Shown here one piece after another: positions 57,017-64,000 of a DNA stretch of 64,000 bases. How positions within the stretch are numbered: the first letter of the stretch is position 1; each line of letters starts with the position of its first letter. Under the pieces are notes generated by a model that was given only the letters and a program-made list of their open reading frames with translations, was not told the origin of the DNA and did no database searches. A program made the position numbers and the translations under genes. This DNA comes from Caulobacterales bacterium (GTDB lineage Bacteria > Pseudomonadota > Alphaproteobacteria > Caulobacterales > Caulobacteraceae). Location of the stretch: contig JAEKKJ010000009.1 of assembly GCA_019510435.1 (NCBI GenBank), positions 62,001 through 126,000 on the forward strand. Reading direction: 5' to 3'.

Positions 57017-59221
57017 ATGAGCGCCGCCCCCGCCAAGAGCCTGGCCGACAAGGCCGCCGAATACGGCCTGAAGCCCGACGAGTACCAGCTGATCGTCCGC
57101 CGCCTGAACCGCGAGCCCAACGACGTGGAGTTGGGTGTGTTCTCGGTGATGTGGTCCGAGCACTGCAGCTACAAGTCCAGCCGCAAGCACCTCGGCAAGT
57201 TCCCGACCACCGGCCCGCGGGTGATCTGCGGCCCGGGCGAGAACGCCGGCGTCATCAACATCGGCGACGGCCAGGCCTGCATCTTCAAGATGGAGAGCCA
57301 CAACCACCCGTCCTACATCGAGCCGTACCAGGGCGCCGCCACCGGCGTGGGCGGCATCATGCGCGACGTCTTCACCATGGGCGCGCGGCCGGTGGCGCTG
57401 TTGAACGCCCTGCGCTTCGGCGACCCCAGCCATCCGAAGACCCGCCGCCTGGTCTCCGGCGTGGTGGCCGGCATCGGCGGCTACGGCAACTGCGTGGGCG
57501 TGCCCACCGTGGCCGGCGAGACCAACTTCCACCGCGGCTACGACGGCAACATTCTGGTCAACGCCATGTGCGTGGGCCTGGCCGACGCGGACAAGATCTT
57601 CTACTCCGCCGCCCCGTCCGCCGGCCTGCCGGTGGTCTATTTCGGCTCCAAGACCGGCCGCGACGGCATCCATGGCGCGACCATGGCCTCGGCGGAGTTC
57701 TCCGAGGACGCCGAGGAGAAGCGCCCCACCGTCCAGGTGGGCGACCCCTTCGCCGAGAAGCTGCTGATCGAGGCGACGCTGGAGCTGATGGCCTCCGGCG
57801 CCGTGGCCGCGATCCAGGACATGGGCGCGGCGGGCCTCACGTCCTCCTCGGTGGAGATGGCCGGTAAGGGCGGGGTCGGCATCGAGCTGGACCTCGATGC
57901 GGTGCCCCAGCGCGAGGAGGGCATGAGCGCCTACGAGATGATGCTGAGCGAGAGCCAGGAGCGGATGCTGGCGATCCTCAAGCCCGGCCGCGAGGCCGAC
58001 GGCTACCGCATCTTCCAGAAGTGGGGCCTGGACGCGGCCACCATCGGCTGGACCACCGACACCGGCCGGCTGGTGCTGAGGCATCGCGGCGAGACCGTGG
58101 CCGACGTGCCGCTGGCGCCGCTGTTCGACGACGCCCCGCTCTACGACCGGCCCTGGACGGCGCCCGAACCGCAGCCGCGCCTGGATCCGGCCGACCTGCC
58201 GACCCCGGACGACCTCAAGGCCGCGGTGCTGAAGCTGATGGCCGCGCCCGACATGGCCTCCAAGCGCTGGCTCTGGGAGCAGTACGACCGGCACGTGATG
58301 GCCGACACCCTGGAGGACAGCGCCACGGGCGCCGACGCCGGGATCGTGCGCGTGCACGGCGGGCGCAAGGCCCTGGCCATGACCTCCGACGTCACCCCGC
58401 GCTACGTGCAGAACGATCCCTACGAGGGCGGCAAGCAGGCGGTGGCCGAGGCCTGGCGCAACCTGACCGCGGTGGGCGCCGACCCAATCGCCATCACCGA
58501 CAACCTCAACTTCGGCAATCCCGAGCGGCCGCAGATCATGGGCCAGATCGTCCGCGCCATCGAGGGCATGGCCGAGGCCTGCCGCGAGCTCGACTTCCCG
58601 GTCGTGAGCGGCAACGTCAGCCTCTACAACGAGACCAACGGCTCGGCCATTCCGCCGACGCCCACGGTCGGCGGCGTGGGCCTGATCCCCGACTACGCCC
58701 GGCGCGCCGACTTCAGCTCTATGCAGGCGGGTGATGTGCTGGTGCTGGTGGGCGCCACGCGGGGCGAGCTGGGCGCGTCGATGTACCTGCGCGAGATCGC
58801 CGGCCGCGAGGACGGCGCGCCGCCGCCCGTGGACCTGGCGCTGGAGCGTCGGACCGGCGACGCCATCCGCGGGCTGATCCGGGCCGGGCAGGTCCGCACC
58901 GTCCACGACCTCTCCGACGGCGGGCTGATCGCCGCGCTCTGCGAGATGTGCCTGGCCTCGGGTATCGGCTGCGAGCTGCGGCTGGACGGGCAGCTCTGGG
59001 TCCAGCTCTTCGCCGAGGACCAGGCCCGCTACCTGGTGGCGACGCCCGACCCGGCGGTGGTGCTGGCGGCGGCTGAGGCCGCGGGCGTGCCAGCCGCAAT
59101 CCTCGGGGACGCCGGCGGCGAGGCCATCGTCATCCCGCCGGGCCTCAACCTGCCGCTCGCCGAGCTGCGCACCGCGCACGAGGGCTGGCTGCCCGGCTTC
59201 ATGGGCGAGCCGGCAACCTAG
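57017..59221 (+). CDS. purL: FGAM synthetase, PurL subunit
   Basis: 734 residues, the small (PurS/PurQ-dependent) form. [17 protein letters not shown] with the catalytic His, [39 protein letters not shown], and the second-half [19 protein letters not shown] and [12 protein letters not shown] blocks are intact. It uses ATP and ammonia from PurQ to make FGAM. AAGG lies six bases before the chosen ATG; an upstream ATG at 56993 is possible. It is 10.7 kb from purQ. Its stop shares CTAG with the convergent sigma factor gene. Confidence 0.96.
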
Positions 59222-59982
59222 GGCGCCAGGAAGCGGCGCAGGCGGTCCTTGGCCAGCTGGCGGCGCTTGCGGACCAGCTCGCGGGTGATGTTGAGGCGCC
59301 GGGCGATGTCGTCGTCGGTCCAGCCCTCCAGGTGCAGGCGTAAGGGGTCGTTCAGCGGCCCCGGCAAGGCGCGCATCGCCTGCAGCCAGGCGTTCTCGGA
59401 TTGCGCCAGCGACAGCTCCTCCTCCGGCGACGGCGCCGCGCGCGGCCAGGCCTCGGGCGCTGGCGCCGGCTCGATCGTGGAGTCGACCATCACCGCATGG
59501 CAGGCGTTGCGCCGGTGCTGGTCCATGCAGGCGTTGTGAAGGATGCGCAGCAGCCAGGCCCGCGGGTTCTGCACAGGCTGGCGCGCATAGGCCTGGGCCG
59601 CGCGCAGCATGGCGTTGCCTAGGGCGTCCTCGGCGTCGGCCCGGTTGCCGCCGGACAGGTGGAAGCTGCGGCGGCGCAGGAACTCCTGGTGCGCCAGCCA
59701 CACCGCCCAGAAGCCGTCGAGCCCCGCGGGCCGATCCAGCGCATGGGCGATCACCGCGGCAGGCGAGAGGCGGGCGCCGTTCGGCGTCGGGGCGAGGCCA
59801 CGCTGAGCCGAGCGGGCCAGGATCTCCGCCGGCGAGACAGCGCGGGCCGGGGCCCGGCGTCGCGCGACCGCGGGCGAGCGCTCCTCCGGCGGGGCGGCCG
59901 GCTCGGCCTGCGCCGGCTCGGGCGCATCGGGCGGCTCGACCGCCGGGCTCACGGCGGATGGGAACAGATGGACCACATTCAT
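59218..59982 (-). CDS. Sigma-70-like factor at the end of the reb cluster
   Basis: 254 residues. About 95 N-terminal residues are Pro/Ala/Glu-rich and probably disordered ([19 protein letters not shown]). Then comes sigma region 2 ([55 protein letters not shown]) and region 4 ([34 protein letters not shown]). Sigma factors adjoin reb genes in other proteobacteria; in Pseudomonas aeruginosa PA14 a FecI-type factor is reported, from memory, to act on them. This is the likely activator of the R-body genes upstream. No anti-sigma partner is recognised. Confidence 0.8.
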
Positions 59983-60242
59983 TCGCACGCCCCCGCAGCT
60001 GTGACGGCGGGCGCAGCGCACGCGTCACCGCGCACGGCCGTCGGACCGCGGTCGCTGGTTCAGGTCTTTCGGAGTTGGCCAGACCTCTCGGAATTGGCTC
60101 GTGCGCAGGCGTCCGCGCGAAGACGGCGCGGCGGCCCACCTGCTGGATCGGACACCTCGAGCCCGGCCGGCGAGTCCACGGCTTTACACGATGATGCACA
60201 GTCTATTTTCTTGTTTATCTACAGCGTCATGAGACGATCTCC
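59983..60242. other. Intergenic region between reb genes and sigma gene
   Basis: No gene seen. The part at about 60184-60235 is clearly AT-rich relative to the surroundings and, on the minus strand, lies 200-250 bases before the sigma gene start, so it could hold its promoter. GAGACGATCTC-like dyad (60232-60242) adjoins the end of the last reb-cluster gene and may be part of a weak terminator. Confidence 0.45.
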
Positions 60243-60551
60243 TCAGTTTGGCGGCGCCTCCTGCGACTTGTCGGCGGCGTTGGCGAGCATGGTGCGGATC
60301 GCCAGCTCCAGTTGCCGGGTCACCTCGCGGGCGATCATCTGCTGCAGCGCCTGCACGATCTCGGCGCTGGCCCGCGCCGCCGCCGGGCGCATCCGCTCGG
60401 GCATCGCGGCCAGGCGCTGCTCCTCCACCGCCCGGGTCAGCGACTCCCGCTGGTCGGCGAACCCGCCGAGCACCTTGTCGCGCTGCGCGGCCACCGCGTC
60501 GTAGAGGTGGGCGGGCTCGCCGGACGGGTCCTGGGGGGGCGCCTCGCTCAT
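60243..60551 (-). CDS. Small reb-cluster protein, unknown, helical
   Basis: 102 residues. Acidic/Pro N-terminus, then helical sequence with LYDAVAAQRDKVLGGFADQRESLTRAVEEQRLAAMPERM and EIVQALQQMIAREVTRQLELAIRTML. Predicted soluble coiled coil. It shares no clear similarity with RebB. Its ATG overlaps the preceding stop by four bases (60548-60551). Together with the next two proteins it could serve in assembly or regulation of the ribbons; function not recognised. Confidence 0.65.
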   Translation of the reverse strand: MSEAPPQDPSGEPAHLYDAVAAQRDKVLGGFADQRESLTRAVEEQRLAAMPERMRPAAARASAEIVQALQQMIAREVTRQLELAIRTMLANAADKSQEAPPN

Positions 60552-60817
60552 TTCTGGGGCGTCACGGGCTCAAGGCCGAGGGCCCGGCGCAGCTGGTCGC
60601 GCATCAGCTTGACCATCTCGTCGGTGAAGTGGGGCATGGGCCCTTCGGCCGGCGGCTTGAGAGTCTTGGGCCACTCGTCCGCGAGAGTGTCGAAGAGGGC
60701 GACCACCGCCTGCTGGGCGGCCGCCACCACGGGATTGACCGCCAGCTCCGGCACGGGGTCCGGCGGCGGCGGCGTCTCGCCCGGATCGGTCGCCCGGCCG
60801 CCCTTCGACTTGGCCAT
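60548..60817 (-). CDS. Small reb-cluster protein, unknown
   Basis: 89 residues. A basic N-terminus (MAKSKGGRATD), a Pro-rich linker (PPPPDPVPEL), then two helices (VVAAAQQAVVALFDTLADEWPKTL and FTDEMVKLMRDQLRRALGL). Soluble. Its stop overlaps the next ATG. The pairing with the 60243 gene by overlap suggests that the two products are made in similar amounts. No family recognised. Confidence 0.6.
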   Translation of the reverse strand: MAKSKGGRATDPGETPPPPDPVPELAVNPVVAAAQQAVVALFDTLADEWPKTLKPPAEGPMPHFTDEMVKLMRDQLRRALGLEPVTPQK

Positions 60818-60837
60818 CAGCTTGGCCCTCCGCCCGC

Positions 60838-61215
60838 CTATGCTTCCGGGTCCGGGTCCGGCGCGGGGTCGCCGCCCGGAGCCGAGTCGCGATGGTCGAA
60901 GGCGCGCATCTCCTCAAGGATCTGGCGGGCCAGGGCGGAGATGTCGGCGGCCAGGCCGGCATAGGGGTTGTCCCACGCGGGCCGCTGCAGCGCCCAGCTC
61001 AGCTCGGCGACGTTGGCCGCAGCCTCGCGCAGGCGCTCGTATTCGGCGGCGGGATCGTTCCAGCGACCGGCGACGCCGTCGAGGTAGCCCACCAGCCGGG
61101 CGGTCTCGGCGATCGTCTCGCGCTCGAGGGCCAGGGCCTCGGCCACCACGGCCAGGGCCTCGCCGCCGTAGCACGGCGGGGGATGCGGATAGTGACGGTG
61201 GGGGTGATGCGCCAT
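60838..61215 (-). CDS. Small reb-cluster protein with His/Pro-rich N-terminus
   Basis: 125 residues: MAHHPHRHYPHPPPCYGGEA (His/Pro-rich, one Cys), then helices (LAVVAEALALERETIAETARLVGYLDGVAG, YERLREAAANVAELSWALQ, ALARQILEEMRAF) and an acidic Pro/Asp tail. GGAGG lies five bases before the ATG, so translation should be strong. The His cluster could bind metal or titrate at low pH, which is notable because known R-bodies extend on acidification; that link is speculation. Confidence 0.62.
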   Translation of the reverse strand: MAHHPHRHYPHPPPCYGGEALAVVAEALALERETIAETARLVGYLDGVAGRWNDPAAEYERLREAAANVAELSWALQRPAWDNPYAGLAADISALARQILEEMRAFDHRDSAPGGDPAPDPDPEA

Positions 61216-61236
61216 GTGCGCCTCCTGTTTTGACGG

Positions 61237-61668
61237 TCAGGTCCTGGGGAAGAACTCGTTGACGGCGAGGCTCACGGTCGAGGCGGCCAGGCCTGCGGAG
61301 ACCGGAGCCAGCAGGGAGCTGACCACCGCCAGCACCCAGGCGGCCACGGGCCCCGAGGTCGGGTCCACGTCCTCGGTGGCGAGGATCATCGCCAGCGCCT
61401 TGCCCTGCACCGCGGCGCTGATGGAGAGGACGTTGCGCTCGTAGTCCGCCGCGTCCTGCGTCGCGATGGCCGCGGACTGGGTGGCCTTGTCGTAGGCGAT
61501 GGCCGCGCCGGCCGAGATCACCGTCGCGCCGGCCGCCTTGGCCGCCAGGCGCAGCTCGTCCGCCGGCGGCGCGGCCGAGTCCGGCTTCGGCAGCAGGCCC
61601 AGGGCGTAGCGGGTCGAGGTGTCGACGGCGTCGACGATCTGCTTGTTGAGCGGCGGGGCTTCGGACAC
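61237..61668 (-). CDS. Divergent RebB-like protein
   Basis: 143 residues. The N-terminal LNKQIVDAVDTSTRYALGLLP parallels the VNxxVTDAVTQxNVKxLG start of the RebB proteins next to it. The central VISAGAAIAYDKATQSAAIATQDAADYERN and a C-terminal hydrophobic segment (VAAWVLAVVSSLLAPVSAGLAAS) differ. It is longer than typical RebB (about 80-110). It begins at GTG with GGAAGG upstream. Probably a structural or membrane-contact variant of the ribbon proteins. Confidence 0.55.
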   Translation of the reverse strand: MSEAPPLNKQIVDAVDTSTRYALGLLPKPDSAAPPADELRLAAKAAGATVISAGAAIAYDKATQSAAIATQDAADYERNVLSISAAVQGKALAMILATEDVDPTSGPVAAWVLAVVSSLLAPVSAGLAASTVSLAVNEFFPRT

Positions 61669-61706
61669 GGGCGCGGACCTTCCGTTCGTGGAGCGACTTC
61701 TGGGAG

Positions 61707-61940
61707 CTACTTCTGGACAGCGTTCAGGATCATGGTCACCGCGCTGGAGGTGACGGCGTTGCCGATCTGCTGCAGCCCGCCCTGCGCCTGCTGGGCGTTC
61801 TGCATGGCCAGCGAGATGGAGTGGGCCATGCTCTGGTAGACCATGGCCATGGACTGGGCGGGCGCTTCGCCCAGCACCTTGACGTTGGTCTGGGTGACCG
61901 CATCGGTGACCTGGGCGTTGACGGGCGGATCTGGTGGCAT
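61707..61940 (-). CDS. RebB family R-body protein, short type
   Basis: 77 residues. VNAQVTDAVTQTNVKVLGEAPAQSMAMVYQSMAHSISLAMQNAQQAQGG carries the RebB family pattern: TDAVTQxNVxxLG, then Y(Q)S-AHS and NAxxQQ. It has no signal peptide. In Caedibacter such small proteins polymerise into coiled ribbons in the cytoplasm. Ends in a short hydrophobic helix (VTSSAVTMILNAVQK). One of at least four clear copies in the cluster. Confidence 0.85.
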   Translation of the reverse strand: MPPDPPVNAQVTDAVTQTNVKVLGEAPAQSMAMVYQSMAHSISLAMQNAQQAQGGLQQIGNAVTSSAVTMILNAVQK

Positions 61941-61965
61941 CTGGTCGCCGTCCTTTCGCTATCCG

Positions 61966-62292
61966 TCACGCCTGCTTCAGCGCCTTGAGCGCCTTCAGCA
62001 GGATGAGCGCGGTGTGGAGGGTGTCGGACCGGCCGATCCGCGTGCTGGCGGTGGCGGCCGAGGACGACCCGAGCGAATAGAGCTGGATGACCCCCTGGTT
62101 GGTAGCGGCCTGGGCGCAGATCGAGGCCTGGCGCTGGGCCTGGACCGCGTTCTCGTAGGCGATGGAGATCGAGTGGGCGGCGCTCTGGTAGACCGCGCTC
62201 ATCGCCATGGCGCCGGCCGAGCCGAGGATCAGCACGTTCTGCTGCGTGACCGCGTCGGTGATCCGGCTGTTGACGGGGGTGGGATAGGCCAT
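61966..62292 (-). CDS. RebB family R-body protein, long type
   Basis: 108 residues. VNSRITDAVTQQNVLILGSAGAMAMSAVYQSAAHSISIAYENAVQAQ is the RebB core; it is followed by the long-type tail ICAQAATNQGVIQLYSLGS and a final helix ALILLKALKALKQA. The same tail (QAATNQGVIQ(I/L)YS) is found in the copies at 63420 and 63812, separating a long subgroup from the short one at 61707 and 62301. Confidence 0.85.
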   Translation of the reverse strand: MAYPTPVNSRITDAVTQQNVLILGSAGAMAMSAVYQSAAHSISIAYENAVQAQRQASICAQAATNQGVIQLYSLGSSSAATASTRIGRSDTLHTALILLKALKALKQA

Positions 62293-62300
62293 CGGTCCGA

Positions 62301-62561
62301 TCAGTGCGCTGGCGGTTTCTGGGCGGCGGCGGCGGGCGTGACGCTGGTGATCAGGGTGATCAGGGCGGCGACGGCGGCGTTGTTGATCTGCTGCATGCCG
62401 CCCTGCGCCTGGCTGGCGCTTTCCATCGAAAGGCTGGTGGCGTGGGCGGCGGCCTGCAGCGTCATCGCCGCGCCTTCCGCAGGACCCTCGCCCAGCAGCT
62501 TCACGTTGGTCTGGGTGACCGCGTCGGTGACCTGGGTGTTGACGAGCTCGGGATCGGCCAT
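62301..62561 (-). CDS. RebB family R-body protein, short type
   Basis: 86 residues. VNTQVTDAVTQTNVKLLGEGPAEGAAMTLQAAAHATSLSMESASQAQGGMQQINNAA is close to the short copy at 61707 (shared QAQGGxQQI). The C-terminal VAALITLITSVTPAAAAQ is mildly hydrophobic. The Y of the YQSxAHS motif is replaced by L, a small departure. Confidence 0.85.
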   Translation of the reverse strand: MADPELVNTQVTDAVTQTNVKLLGEGPAEGAAMTLQAAAHATSLSMESASQAQGGMQQINNAAVAALITLITSVTPAAAAQKPPAH

Positions 62562-62577
62562 CCGCCTGCCCTTCCCT

Positions 62578-62874
62578 TCAGGTCACGACCGGCGCGCCGG
62601 ACGGCAGCACGCTGGTGGTCTCGCGCACCCGGGTGGTGCTGCTGGCGAGCGGCCGCGGCGCCTGCATCTCGGCCAGGCTCTGGGCCAGGTTGCGGATCTG
62701 CACCGTCGACAGCTCGTTCGAATGGCGCACCGAGTTCATCAGCCGCGTCACCAGGGCGTCGGACGCCCCGACCATGGCGACCAGTGTCGTGCCCATGACC
62801 CCGGCGCCGGCGCAGAGCAGCAGCAGGTCGCCCAGCTGCACCGTGGCGTCGTCGCCGACTTCAAGCCTCGTCAT
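62578..62874 (-). CDS. Small reb-cluster protein with hydrophobic segment
   Basis: 98 residues. After MTRLEVGDDATVQ comes a hydrophobic stretch (LGDLLLLCAGAGVMGTTLVAMVG, about residues 14-36), then a helix (ALVTRLMNSVRHSNELSTVQIRNLAQSLAEMQ) and a Ser/Thr-rich tail. It may be a membrane or ribbon-edge component. It does not show the TDAVTQ motif. Its start overlaps the end of the upstream hexapeptide-repeat gene by 14 bases. Confidence 0.6.
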   Translation of the reverse strand: MTRLEVGDDATVQLGDLLLLCAGAGVMGTTLVAMVGASDALVTRLMNSVRHSNELSTVQIRNLAQSLAEMQAPRPLASSTTRVRETTSVLPSGAPVVT

Positions 62875-63331
62875 GGTCGGCTCCCGAGCTGGCGTTGGGA
62901 TATGGCCAGGGTACGTCGGGCGTCTGGCCCAGCAGCGCCTGCACGCAGTTGGCCGTGGCCACCATGCCGAGGACGTTGGTCATCTGCTGGTTGTGCGTGG
63001 CGTTGTGGAACATCGCGCCGCTGGCCTGGTTGGCCGCGATCAGGCTCTGCAGGGTGGTCCAGGCGGGCCCCGAGCCGATGACAGCGAGCAGCGTCGCGGC
63101 GACGCCATCGACCAGGTGCGAGGTCTTCGGATCGCGGCAGAGCTCCATCGTCAGCTTCAGGACGTCGTCGACGCCCAGGCCCTGGGCGGCCCCGCCTTTG
63201 GCCTGCGTCTGCCCTTTGGCCTGCGTCCGCCCTTCGGCCTGCGTCCGCCGCTCGGCGCGCGCGCCGGCCTCGGCGCGCGTCCTGCCTTCGGCCCGTGTCT
63301 GGCCTTTGGCGCGCTTCTCGCCTTCGGACAT
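62861..63331 (-). CDS. Reb-cluster protein with seven hexapeptide repeats and a Reb-like helical domain
   Basis: 156 residues. Residues 7-48 consist of seven six-residue repeats of the type RAKGQT / RAEGRT / QAEGRT, basic and probably extended or helical. The C-terminal half (VDDVLKLTMELCRDPKTSHLVDGVAATLLAVIG, LIAANQASGAMFHNATHNQQMTNVLGMVATANCVQALLG) has an ASGAMFHNATHNQQ segment resembling the AHS..NAxxQQ region of RebB proteins. GGGAGG lies five bases before the ATG. It could cap, link or nucleate ribbons; function unknown. Confidence 0.6.
   Translation of the reverse strand: MSEGEKRAKGQTRAEGRTRAEAGARAERRTQAEGRTQAKGQTQAKGGAAQGLGVDDVLKLTMELCRDPKTSHLVDGVAATLLAVIGSGPAWTTLQSLIAANQASGAMFHNATHNQQMTNVLGMVATANCVQALLGQTPDVPWPYPNASSGADHDEA
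63188..63313. repeat. 18-bp tandem repeat array, seven units
   Basis: Seven consecutive 18-base units encode the hexapeptide repeats of the 62861-63331 gene. Units keep a CGGCCTGCGTC-like core with base changes between copies. Such arrays change copy number by slippage without breaking the frame. Confidence 0.75.
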
Positions 63332-63419
63332 GGTGTCCTCCCGAAACCCTCGAGCGCGCCCGCCGCGCCCCGCGCGCGTCACGAGTCTGGCGCCGCAGCG
63401 GCGCCAGACCGCGGCGTGG

Positions 63420-63743
63420 TCAGCCCTGGGTCGCCTGCAGGGCGGTCAGCAGCGACAGCAGGGTGTCGGGCGTGTCGGACTGCGAGATCTTCGAGGCGGC
63501 CACGGCGCCGGCCATGGTGTCGACGCTGTAGATCTGGATCACGCCCTGGTTGGTCGCGGCCTGGCCGGCGATCGCCAGCTGCTGCTGCGAGGAGGCGGCG
63601 TTCTCGTAGAGGATGCCCGTGGAGTGGGCCAGGGACTGGTAGATCGCGCCCATGGCCATGGCCGGGGCGTCGCCCAGCACCTTGACGTTCGCCTGGGTGA
63701 CCGCGTCGGTGATCATGCCGTTGACGGGAGTGGGGATTGCCAT
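63420..63743 (-). CDS. RebB family R-body protein, long type
   Basis: 107 residues. VNGMITDAVTQANVKVLGDAPAMAMGAIYQSLAHSTGILYENAASSQQQ is the RebB core, followed by the long-type tail QAATNQGVIQIYSVDTMAG and a final Leu-rich helix (LLSLLTALQATQG). It shares a 72-base exact DNA match with the partial copy upstream, so the two arose from recent duplication or gene conversion. Confidence 0.88.
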   Translation of the reverse strand: MAIPTPVNGMITDAVTQANVKVLGDAPAMAMGAIYQSLAHSTGILYENAASSQQQLAIAGQAATNQGVIQIYSVDTMAGAVAASKISQSDTPDTLLSLLTALQATQG

Positions 63744-63988
63744 GTCGTGTCCTCAGCTTTCGGGATTTGGGCCGACGCTGAGCGCCGGCGGTTGGGGGTT
63801 CAGGCGCGGTGTCAGCCCGCCGGGCGGCTGGCCCGGAGCGCGGTGAGCAGCGCCATCATGTTGTCGGGCACGTCGGCCTGGGCGAGCTTGGACGTGGCCA
63901 CCGCGCCGGCCATGGAGTCGACGCTGTAGATCTGGATCACGCCCTGGTTGGTCGCGGCCTGGCCGGCGATCGCCAGCTGCTGCTGCGA
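63519..63988. repeat. Two direct copies of an identical 72-bp segment in neighbouring RebB genes
   Basis: 63519-63590 and 63917-63988 are identical over 72 bases and remain highly similar on either side (for example CGCCGGCCATGG before each). The segment encodes QQLAIAGQAATNQGVIQIYSVD-type residues in both genes. The copies are 398 bases apart in direct orientation, a substrate for recombination that would delete or add one RebB gene. Confidence 0.85.
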
Positions 63989-64000
63989 CGAGGTGGCGTT
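63812..64000 (-). CDS. RebB family R-body protein, long type, 5' end outside window
   Basis: The last 62 residues are present (NATSSQQQLAIAGQ...TNQGVIQIYSVDSMAG...MMALLTALRASRPAG). It matches the 63420 protein almost residue for residue apart from the C-terminal end. The start and the TDAVTQ motif lie beyond base 64000. It shows that the reb cluster continues past the window. Confidence 0.85.
   Translation of the reverse strand, partial: NATSSQQQLAIAGQAATNQGVIQIYSVDSMAGAVATSKLAQADVPDNMMALLTALRASRPAG

What the first reader, a model, noticed from the sequence alone, without database searches (positions are those of the whole stretch)
59218..64000. Multi-paralogue reb (R-body) cluster with its own sigma factor and unknown small partners
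Seen: at least four proteins share the pattern TDAVTQxNVxxLG...AHS...NAxxQQ, with two more divergent Reb-like proteins, four small proteins without recognised family, and a sigma-70-like gene at the downstream end, all on one strand. Established: RebB-type proteins build R-bodies, extendable cytoplasmic ribbons known from Caedibacter; reb homologues are found widely in proteobacteria, mostly without a known role. Inference: this is a complete, free-living R-body system whose accessory genes are undescribed. The cluster runs beyond the window.
Basis: partly seen in the sequence, partly recalled or inferred. Interest (0 to 1): 0.88.

Follow-up and report, generated by a model that had tools for sequence, protein, structure and literature searches.

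The report
R-body gene cluster with dedicated sigma
This is a real gene cluster for R-bodies, the coiled protein ribbons that some bacteria can unroll, in a variant seen in the Caulobacter family, with a probable dedicated on-switch (a sigma factor and a matching promoter) and four small partner proteins of unknown role.

Summary
Six genes match RebB (PF11747), a seventh is a Reb-related HP1.2-type protein, four small proteins match no family, and an ECF-type sigma gene closes the cluster; the first reb gene crosses the window edge. The same twelve genes in the same order occur in 10 other Caulobacteraceae genomes (sigma 5-6 kb away in three). Sigma factors in reb clusters are already in print. 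New, as far as my paper searches reach: (1) a Caulobacteraceae subtype combining an HP1.2-type protein with a Group 2-type sigma, without HP1.1, with four lineage-specific accessory families; (2) a conserved promoter TTCAC-N16-CGTC 90-120 bp before the first reb gene in 11 of 11 genomes and before the sigma gene in 10 of 11 (not this genome); outside that set a relaxed form ([TG]TCAC, chosen after looking) lies before reb genes in 6 of 10 loci with a sigma and 1 of 24 without, the strict form in 2 of 10 and 1 of 24; (3) a divergent gene in 7 of 11 (not this genome) with a nuclease-like signature judged by eye. R-body formation cannot be shown from sequence. New variant of a known kind.

The parts
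63812..64000 (-). Reb1, primary RebB-family protein, cut by the window edge (whole gene 63812-64141 in window numbering). Its promoter TTCAC-N16-CGTC lies outside the window at 64207-64231 (minus strand).
   Evidence: PF11747 94.6 bits; start codon and promoter position
63420..63743 (-). Reb2, primary RebB-family protein, 107 aa
   Evidence: PF11747 95.6 bits
62861..63382 (-). S, divergent Reb with a charged N-terminal extension, 173 aa from GTG (ATG alternative at 63331)
   Evidence: PF11747 29.6 bits, cut-off 24; orthologues in 10 of 10 relatives of this type
62578..62874 (-). H_62578, accessory protein, 98 aa, last six residues GAPVVT in 11 of 11; overlaps S by 14 bases here
   Evidence: No family above cut-off; alignment A4; overlap; model is one long helix, pLDDT 70
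62301..62561 (-). Reb3, primary RebB-family protein, 86 aa
   Evidence: PF11747 50.2 bits
61966..62292 (-). Reb4, primary RebB-family protein, 108 aa
   Evidence: PF11747 81.2 bits
61707..61940 (-). Reb5, primary RebB-family protein, 77 aa
   Evidence: PF11747 78.4 bits
61237..61668 (-). HP1.2-type Reb-related protein, 143 aa
   Evidence: hhalign 97.7% to HP1.2-type set, 88.0% to primary Rebs; alignment A6
60838..61215 (-). H_60838, accessory protein, 125 aa
   Evidence: No family above cut-off; found in 11 of 11 loci of this type; alignment A3
60548..60817 (-). H_60548, accessory protein, 89 aa; overlaps H_60243 by 4 bases
   Evidence: No family above cut-off; 11 of 11 loci of this type; overlap 4 bases in 11 of 11
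60243..60551 (-). H_60243, accessory protein, 102 aa, the best conserved of the four (54-61% identity to relatives)
   Evidence: No family above cut-off; alignment A1; model of two helices, pLDDT 78; distribution
59218..60021 (-). ECF-type sigma factor, 267 aa from GTG 60021, more likely 254 aa from ATG 59982 (MNVV, the start conserved in relatives)
   Evidence: Sigma70_r2 E 1.2e-9, TIGR02937 E 7.3e-15; orthologue in 11 of 11 genomes of this type; clade with other reb sigmas

Best explanation
An R-body operon of a Caulobacteraceae bacterium. Eleven genes (five primary Rebs, two divergent Reb-related proteins, four small accessories) are probably transcribed together from a promoter TTCAC-N16-CGTC about 90 bp before Reb1. 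The ECF sigma encoded at the end of the cluster most likely reads that promoter. In relatives the sigma gene carries the same element and so would feed its own expression, which would suit an all-or-none switch. The Rebs polymerise into the coiled ribbon; the accessories most likely assist or cap its assembly, or carry cargo. Shown: gene content, order, conservation, kinship of the sigma with other reb sigmas, conservation of the element. Inferred: recognition of the element by this sigma, ribbon formation, and the accessory roles.
For: Six PF11747 matches, all in the cluster; same twelve genes in 10 other genomes; reb sigmas in one clade, support 92/91; element before Reb1 in 11 of 11 against 9 of 5,500 shuffled stretches; element before the sigma gene in 10 of 11 and in 3 of 3 of a second genus; outside the discovery set, relaxed element before a Reb in 6 of 10 loci with a reb-type sigma and 1 of 24 without; spacer 16 hits 16 of 20 sigma-bearing loci, the best permuted core pair 3 of 20. 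PA14 precedent: rebP1 expression needs the sigma FecI2 and RcgA.
Against: No element before the window's own sigma gene. The strict TTCAC form lies before a Reb in only 2 of 10 test loci against 1 of 24 (p 0.20); the relaxed form was chosen after seeing L117. Four sigma-bearing loci of one genus lack it, and G576 has a reb-type sigma 17 kb from its reb genes and no element. The element also occurs elsewhere: 15 copies in this genome against 6 of the reversed control. The clade support is just short of the tool's star (95/80) and has long branches. No Crp/Fnr partner in the stretches held. No R-body has been seen.
Confidence: 0.7

Rival explanations
1. The sigma gene is not the regulator of the reb genes, or not mainly. 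The conserved element is a binding site of an activator or repressor (PraR/CdxA type or Crp/Fnr type), and the sigma serves a wider programme such as a developmental or dormancy response.
For: In Azorhizobium, PraR (repressor) and the Crp-Fnr protein RebR control reb (passages of PMC5527310). In R. centenum the R-body genes RC1_1993-1999 depend on CgrA, and RC1_2001, a sigma-70 gene two locus numbers on, is needed for encystment (passages of PMC4681086). This genome's sigma gene lacks the element.
Against: Two short cores at a fixed 16-base spacing, repeated before both reb and sigma genes in two lineages, look like an ECF promoter rather than a palindromic regulator site.
Confidence: 0.17
2. 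The cluster no longer makes ribbons: a retained but silent or repurposed set of Reb-like proteins.
For: Most bacteria with reb genes have not been tested for R-bodies (passage of PMC8322103). Lone reb matches are common in this family: 17 of 36 genomes with a match have a single one, 15 of these in genus g14.
Against: The genes are intact in this genome and conserved in order in 10 others; one relative, the draft G091, has its sigma match in two frames.
Confidence: 0.1

Closest known systems
Reb clusters with a sigma and a Crp-like regulator (Raymann 2013 Group 2), e.g. Ruegeria pomeroyi DSS-3 megaplasmid (L037) and Burkholderia pyrrocinia plasmid pBPJTT (L039)
   Same: Reb genes with an ECF sigma of the same clade and the element before reb genes: L037 strict and relaxed sites, L039 strict site. 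That these two are Group 2 is my assignment from their gene content.
   Different: They carry a Crp/Fnr gene and other hypothetical genes; no HP1.2-type protein was assigned there, and none of the four accessory families was found.
Group 1 reb clusters (HP1.1-HP1.4), e.g. Azospirillum argentinense plasmid (L038), Eleftheria terrae plasmid (L060), Caulobacteraceae locus L053
   Same: HP1.2-type protein after the Rebs
   Different: They have HP1.1 and no reb-type sigma in the stretch held. The HP labels were put on these genes by me from the sizes and order given in PMC3583457.
P. aeruginosa PA14 reb cluster (rebP1P2, rebD, rapA, rcgA, fecI2)
   Same: Reb genes under a linked sigma; stochastic expression (passages of PMC8322103)
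   Different: Its sequence was not fetched; promoter and proteins were not compared here.
Genus of L117, L144, L145 (unnamed Alphaproteobacteria)
   Same: In all three a core of Rebs and divergent Rebs ending in an HP1.2-type protein, a reb-type sigma, and the element before reb and sigma genes
   Different: Longer sigma (about 400 aa), a 530-620 aa gene and a 166-196 aa gene instead of the four accessories
Azorhizobium caulinodans reb operon
   Same: Reb genes with non-reb partners; AZC_3784 is essential for R-bodies (passages of PMC5527310)
   Different: Controlled by PraR and RebR; sequences not compared here

Membership tests
RebB / R-body structural proteins (PF11747) | Match above the curated cut-off | tested here: met
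   Six places, 31.2 to 95.6 bits, cut-off 24
RebB / R-body structural proteins (PF11747) | [QRM][IV]TD signature in the N-terminal part and several paralogues in one cluster | tested here: met
   Five primary Rebs with [IV]TDAVTQ; signature QITD as given in PMC13430693
RebB / R-body structural proteins (PF11747) | Forms coiled, extendable ribbons in the cell | not testable with these tools
   Needs electron microscopy
Raymann Group 1 synteny | HP1.2 | tested here: met
   hhalign 97.7% to HP1.2-type proteins; labels assigned by me
Raymann Group 1 synteny | HP1.1 in the cluster | tested here: not met
   HP1.1 HMM (4 sequences) hits 7 loci, none of the 11 of this type; the small proteins do not resemble parts of it
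Raymann Group 1 synteny | HP1.3 and HP1.4 (divergent Rebs) | tested here: inconclusive
   S resembles HP1.4 (94.0%), primary Rebs (95.0%) and HP1.3 (69.5%) alike
Raymann Group 2 synteny | Sigma factor HP2.3 | tested here: met
   Clade with sigmas of Ruegeria and Burkholderia reb clusters, 92/91; that those are HP2.3 is inferred from gene content
Raymann Group 2 synteny | Crp/Fnr-type regulator HP2.4 in the cluster | tested here: not met
   phmmer with the Ruegeria and Burkholderia proteins finds none in the 11 stretches; the rest of the genome was not tested
Raymann Group 2 synteny | HP2.1 and HP2.2 (205-220 aa) | tested here: inconclusive
   I could not tell which Ruegeria and Burkholderia genes these are. 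Profile comparison of H_60243 with two ~207-aa proteins gave 23.3%, which turned out to be unlike each other; 6.3% with a wider set
ECF sigma factors | Region 2 and region 4 | tested here: met
   PF04542 above cut-off; PF08281 24.3 bits, just under its cut-off of 25.7; TIGR02937 above cut-off
PD-(D/E)XK nucleases (for DivP of the relatives) | Profile or fold match to the superfamily | tested here: not met
   No match in Pfam (3 of 7 sequences), PHROGs and PADLOC (2 of 7) or PDB sequences (profile of all 7); fold not predicted. Only D116 and E134-x-K136 by eye

The most novel reading that the evidence does not exclude
In Caulobacteraceae the reb sigma switches on an R-body and, from a divergent copy of the same promoter, a PD-(D/E)XK-like nuclease that could be the payload which the ribbon helps to deliver into a eukaryotic grazer; the killing agent of R-bodies is still unknown. 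The window's genome would be a lineage that lost this gene or uses another payload.
Probability: 0.15. Interest if true: 0.85.

Novelty: new variant of a known kind. Interest (0 to 1): 0.52.

Why it matters
The regulators and partners of Reb proteins are an open question stated by the survey of 2013 (PMC3583457, section 11). This gives a defined gene set in a family with culturable species (Brevundimonas, Caulobacter), a promoter element that can be tested in a day with a reporter, and, in relatives, a divergently transcribed candidate effector. If the element is the target of the reb sigma, reb regulons can be predicted in other species.

Tried and rejected
HP1.1 split into the three small proteins: rejected, no profile similarity. 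The four accessories as Reb paralogues: no support; for H_62578, its helical model and its place beside S leave it open. H_60243 as a wider family: suggestive only; hhalign 23.2% to a family of three proteins beside the sigma of L117, L144 and L145, against 2.35% for the best of 60 column shuffles, but by HMM only one weak hit in L117 (E 0.0025) and none in L144 or L145. Fold searches of the two helical models gave no PDB match. Element before the window's own sigma gene: looked for, best two mismatches. purL, beside the cluster here, was not found in the other stretches held. The Ruegeria 207-aa protein gave only itself among plasmids and one weak hit in 289 genomes.

How counts were made. 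Of 35 other family genomes with a RebB match I fetched 20; the other 15, all with a single match, were not examined. One search put L111 among loci without a sigma; one search had shown there a sigma read as two overlapping ORFs (39 and 26 bits), so I count it with sigma: 6 of 10 and 1 of 24 (p 0.001). Left where one search had it: 5 of 9 and 2 of 25 (p 0.007). Strict TTCAC: 2 of 10 and 1 of 24 (p 0.20) (all). L115 was dropped as a duplicate of L149. Related genomes are not independent. The tree used 6 of the 11 sigmas of this type; the background row L107 in the reb clade is the reb sigma of G073 itself. Papers were seen as passages or named sections, none whole.
Full report
WHAT IS THERE. 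The window is G000:C5:62001-126000. On its minus strand a run of genes ends at 59218. PF11747 finds six places in the whole genome, all in this run and all above the curated cut-off. Five are primary Rebs with [IV]TDAVTQ; the sixth (62861-63382) is a divergent Reb with a charged N-terminal extension. A seventh related protein (61237-61668) matches no Pfam model but is of the HP1.2 type (profile-profile 97.7%). Four small proteins reach no curated cut-off in Pfam or NCBIfam and nothing below E 0.01 in PHROGs or PADLOC. The last gene is an ECF-type sigma factor. Reb1 is cut by the window edge; its start lies at 64141 in window numbering, and the next gene on that strand is a PEPxxWA-CTERM protein. 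From the coordinates, the gaps from Reb1 to H_60243 are under 90 bp or overlaps; the sigma gene stands 260 bp further on, counted from its ATG at 59982.

A CONSERVED UNIT. A RebB search of 390 genomes of the same family gave 36 with a match, this one included. I fetched stretches of 20 of the 35 others. Ten of the 20 carry the same genes in the same order: Reb1, Reb2, S, H_62578, Reb3, Reb4, Reb5, HP1.2-type, H_60838, H_60548, H_60243, sigma; L049 has one more primary Reb. The sigma gene follows directly in seven and lies 5-6 kb further on in three, so a sigma match is present in 11 of 11; in one, the draft G091, it falls in two frames. Seven of these contigs appear by length in a named collection as Brevundimonas (5), Caulobacter (1) and an unnamed Caulobacterales bacterium (1). 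The window's own genus is not named; Phenylobacterium is a guess. H_60548 and H_60243 overlap by 4 bases in 11 of 11; S and H_62578 overlap by 4 bases in 8 and by 8, 14 and 268 bases (the last by choice of ORF start) in the other three. H_60243 was found in 3 of 200 genomes of the order, all three with this cluster, and at 7 places in the named genome collection (a scan by short patterns that can miss distant kin). The four accessory families were not found in the other reb loci searched by HMM, but for one weak H_60243 hit in L117 (E 0.0025).

PLACE AMONG KNOWN REB CLUSTERS. Raymann et al. 2013 (PMC3583457; passages and section 11) describe two mutually exclusive patterns: Group 1 with HP1.1-HP1.4, and Group 2 with HP2.1, HP2.2 and often a sigma (HP2.3) and a Crp-like regulator (HP2.4). 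The window type has an HP1.2-type protein but no HP1.1, and its sigma falls in one clade with those of reb clusters of Ruegeria, Burkholderia and two other alphaproteobacterial genera (support 92/91, with long branches). So it mixes both patterns; the HP labels are put on genes by me from the paper's sizes and order, since its figures are not held. Dorr et al. 2026 (PMC13430693; results section and passages) say that they left out the non-Reb neighbours. Neither main text holds the words Caulobacter, Brevundimonas or Caulobacterales; supplements could not be read.

A PROMOTER FOR THE SIGMA. Aligning the stretch before Reb1 in the 11 genomes showed TTCAC-N16-CGTC at -90 to -120 in 11 of 11; 9 of 5,500 dinucleotide-shuffled stretches have it. 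The same element lies before the sigma gene in 10 of 11, nine exact and one with CGTT, the exception being the window's own genome. In another alphaproteobacterial genus (L117, L144, L145) it lies 87-88 bp before the sigma gene in 3 of 3 and, as GTCAC-N16-CGTC, about 100-110 bp before the first two Rebs in 3 of 3. The relaxation to [TG]TCAC was made after seeing L117. With it, loci outside the discovery set have the element within 150 bp of a Reb start in 6 of 10 with a reb-type sigma and in 1 of 24 without (p 0.001); with L111, whose sigma is read as two ORFs, left out of the sigma group it is 5 of 9 against 2 of 25 (p 0.007); with strict TTCAC it is 2 of 10 against 1 of 24 (p 0.20). The four misses are one genus (g99), which shares a CACTTTTAAAGTG palindrome instead. 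The real pair of cores at spacing 16 occurs in 16 of 20 sigma-bearing loci, 11 of them the discovery set; spacing 17 in 4; the best other of 144 permuted core pairs in 3. G576, counted among the 24, has a reb-type sigma about 17 kb away and no element. Genome-wide the strict pattern occurs 15, 20 and 17 times in three genomes against 6, 3 and 6 for the reversed control, so it is not specific on its own. ECF sigmas commonly read two short elements about 16-17 bases apart (recalled). I infer that this sigma reads the element and, in relatives, its own gene; no experiment shows it.

A DIVERGENT GENE IN RELATIVES. In 8 of 11 loci, this genome included, an opposite-strand copy of the element lies upstream of Reb1. 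In 7 of these it is followed by a gene for a protein of 207-235 aa by first start, here called DivP; it is absent from this genome and from the three Brevundimonas-group genomes that also lack the copy. DivP occurs in 5 of 299 family genomes, all five of the window type. Its invariant D116 and E134-x-K136 (numbering of the first row) resemble a PD-(D/E)XK nuclease core by eye; no library or PDB sequence match supports this. It is a lead for the unknown killing agent, no more.

HOW IT PROBABLY WORKS. The sigma, when active, transcribes the reb operon; where its own gene carries the element the response feeds itself, which would suit rare all-or-none expression. In PA14 the rebP1 promoter is on in 0.26% of cells and needs FecI2 and RcgA, and RapA associates with R-bodies (passages of PMC8322103). 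In Azorhizobium a non-Reb protein, AZC_3784, is needed for R-bodies (passages of PMC5527310). By analogy the accessories here most likely serve assembly; the two that I modelled are helical, without a PDB fold match. R. centenum induces its R-body genes up to 50-fold in cyst formation (passages of PMC4340629), and a sigma gene two locus numbers beyond them is needed for encystment (passages of PMC4681086); whether it belongs to the reb sigma clade was not tested. This is a reminder that a reb-linked sigma may control more than R-bodies.

VERDICT. Observation confirmed, interpretation partly supported. A sigma in a reb cluster is in print. My paper searches (open-licence PMC papers only) turned up no promoter consensus of reb sigmas across lineages and no account of this Caulobacteraceae subtype. 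PMC4362757 reports a de novo motif for FecI2, shown in a figure that is not held (passages), so the promoter part may overlap with it.

Noticed in passing
L040:6095-6763(-), L043:2550-3176(-), L044:6031-6657(-), L045:4818-5486(-), L047:9848-10555(+), L048:5298-5999(-), L049:9633-10256(+): DivP: a gene divergent from the reb operon behind an opposite-strand copy of the element, protein with invariant D116 and E134-x-K136 (nuclease-like by eye), in 7 of 11 genomes of this type.
   Followed up: partly
L117, L144, L145 (three genomes of one alphaproteobacterial genus): A related reb architecture with a sigma of about 400 aa, a 530-620 aa gene and a 166-196 aa gene upstream, and the element before reb and sigma genes; in L117 and L145 also a copy upstream of the 530-620 aa gene.
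   Followed up: partly
L110, L114, L116, L118 (one genus, AT-rich intergenic regions): Reb genes divergent from a reb-type sigma share a palindrome CACTTTTAAAGTG (exact or nearly so) in the intergenic region and lack the TTCAC/CGTC element.
   Followed up: no
window 62578-62874 and its ten orthologues: The last six residues, GAPVVT, are identical in 11 of 11 while the middle of the protein varies: a possible C-terminal tag or docking peptide.
   Followed up: no
L007:6534-7199(-), window numbering 64534-65199: A PEPxxWA-CTERM sorting-domain protein stands upstream of Reb1 in this genome, on the side where seven relatives have DivP; an opposite-strand copy of the element remains at C5:126269-126293, a relic or chance.
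   Followed up: no
Family genus g14 (Caulobacter by contig match), e.g. L008, L011, L012, L015, L019, L020, L022, L024: 15 of the 17 family genomes with a single RebB match are of genus g14, several with very high scores: lone reb genes of unknown use.
   Followed up: no
G576: reb genes C1:345313-350210, sigma C1:327723-328247 (-): A reb-type sigma (149 bits) about 17 kb from a ten-reb cluster that lacks the element.
   Followed up: no
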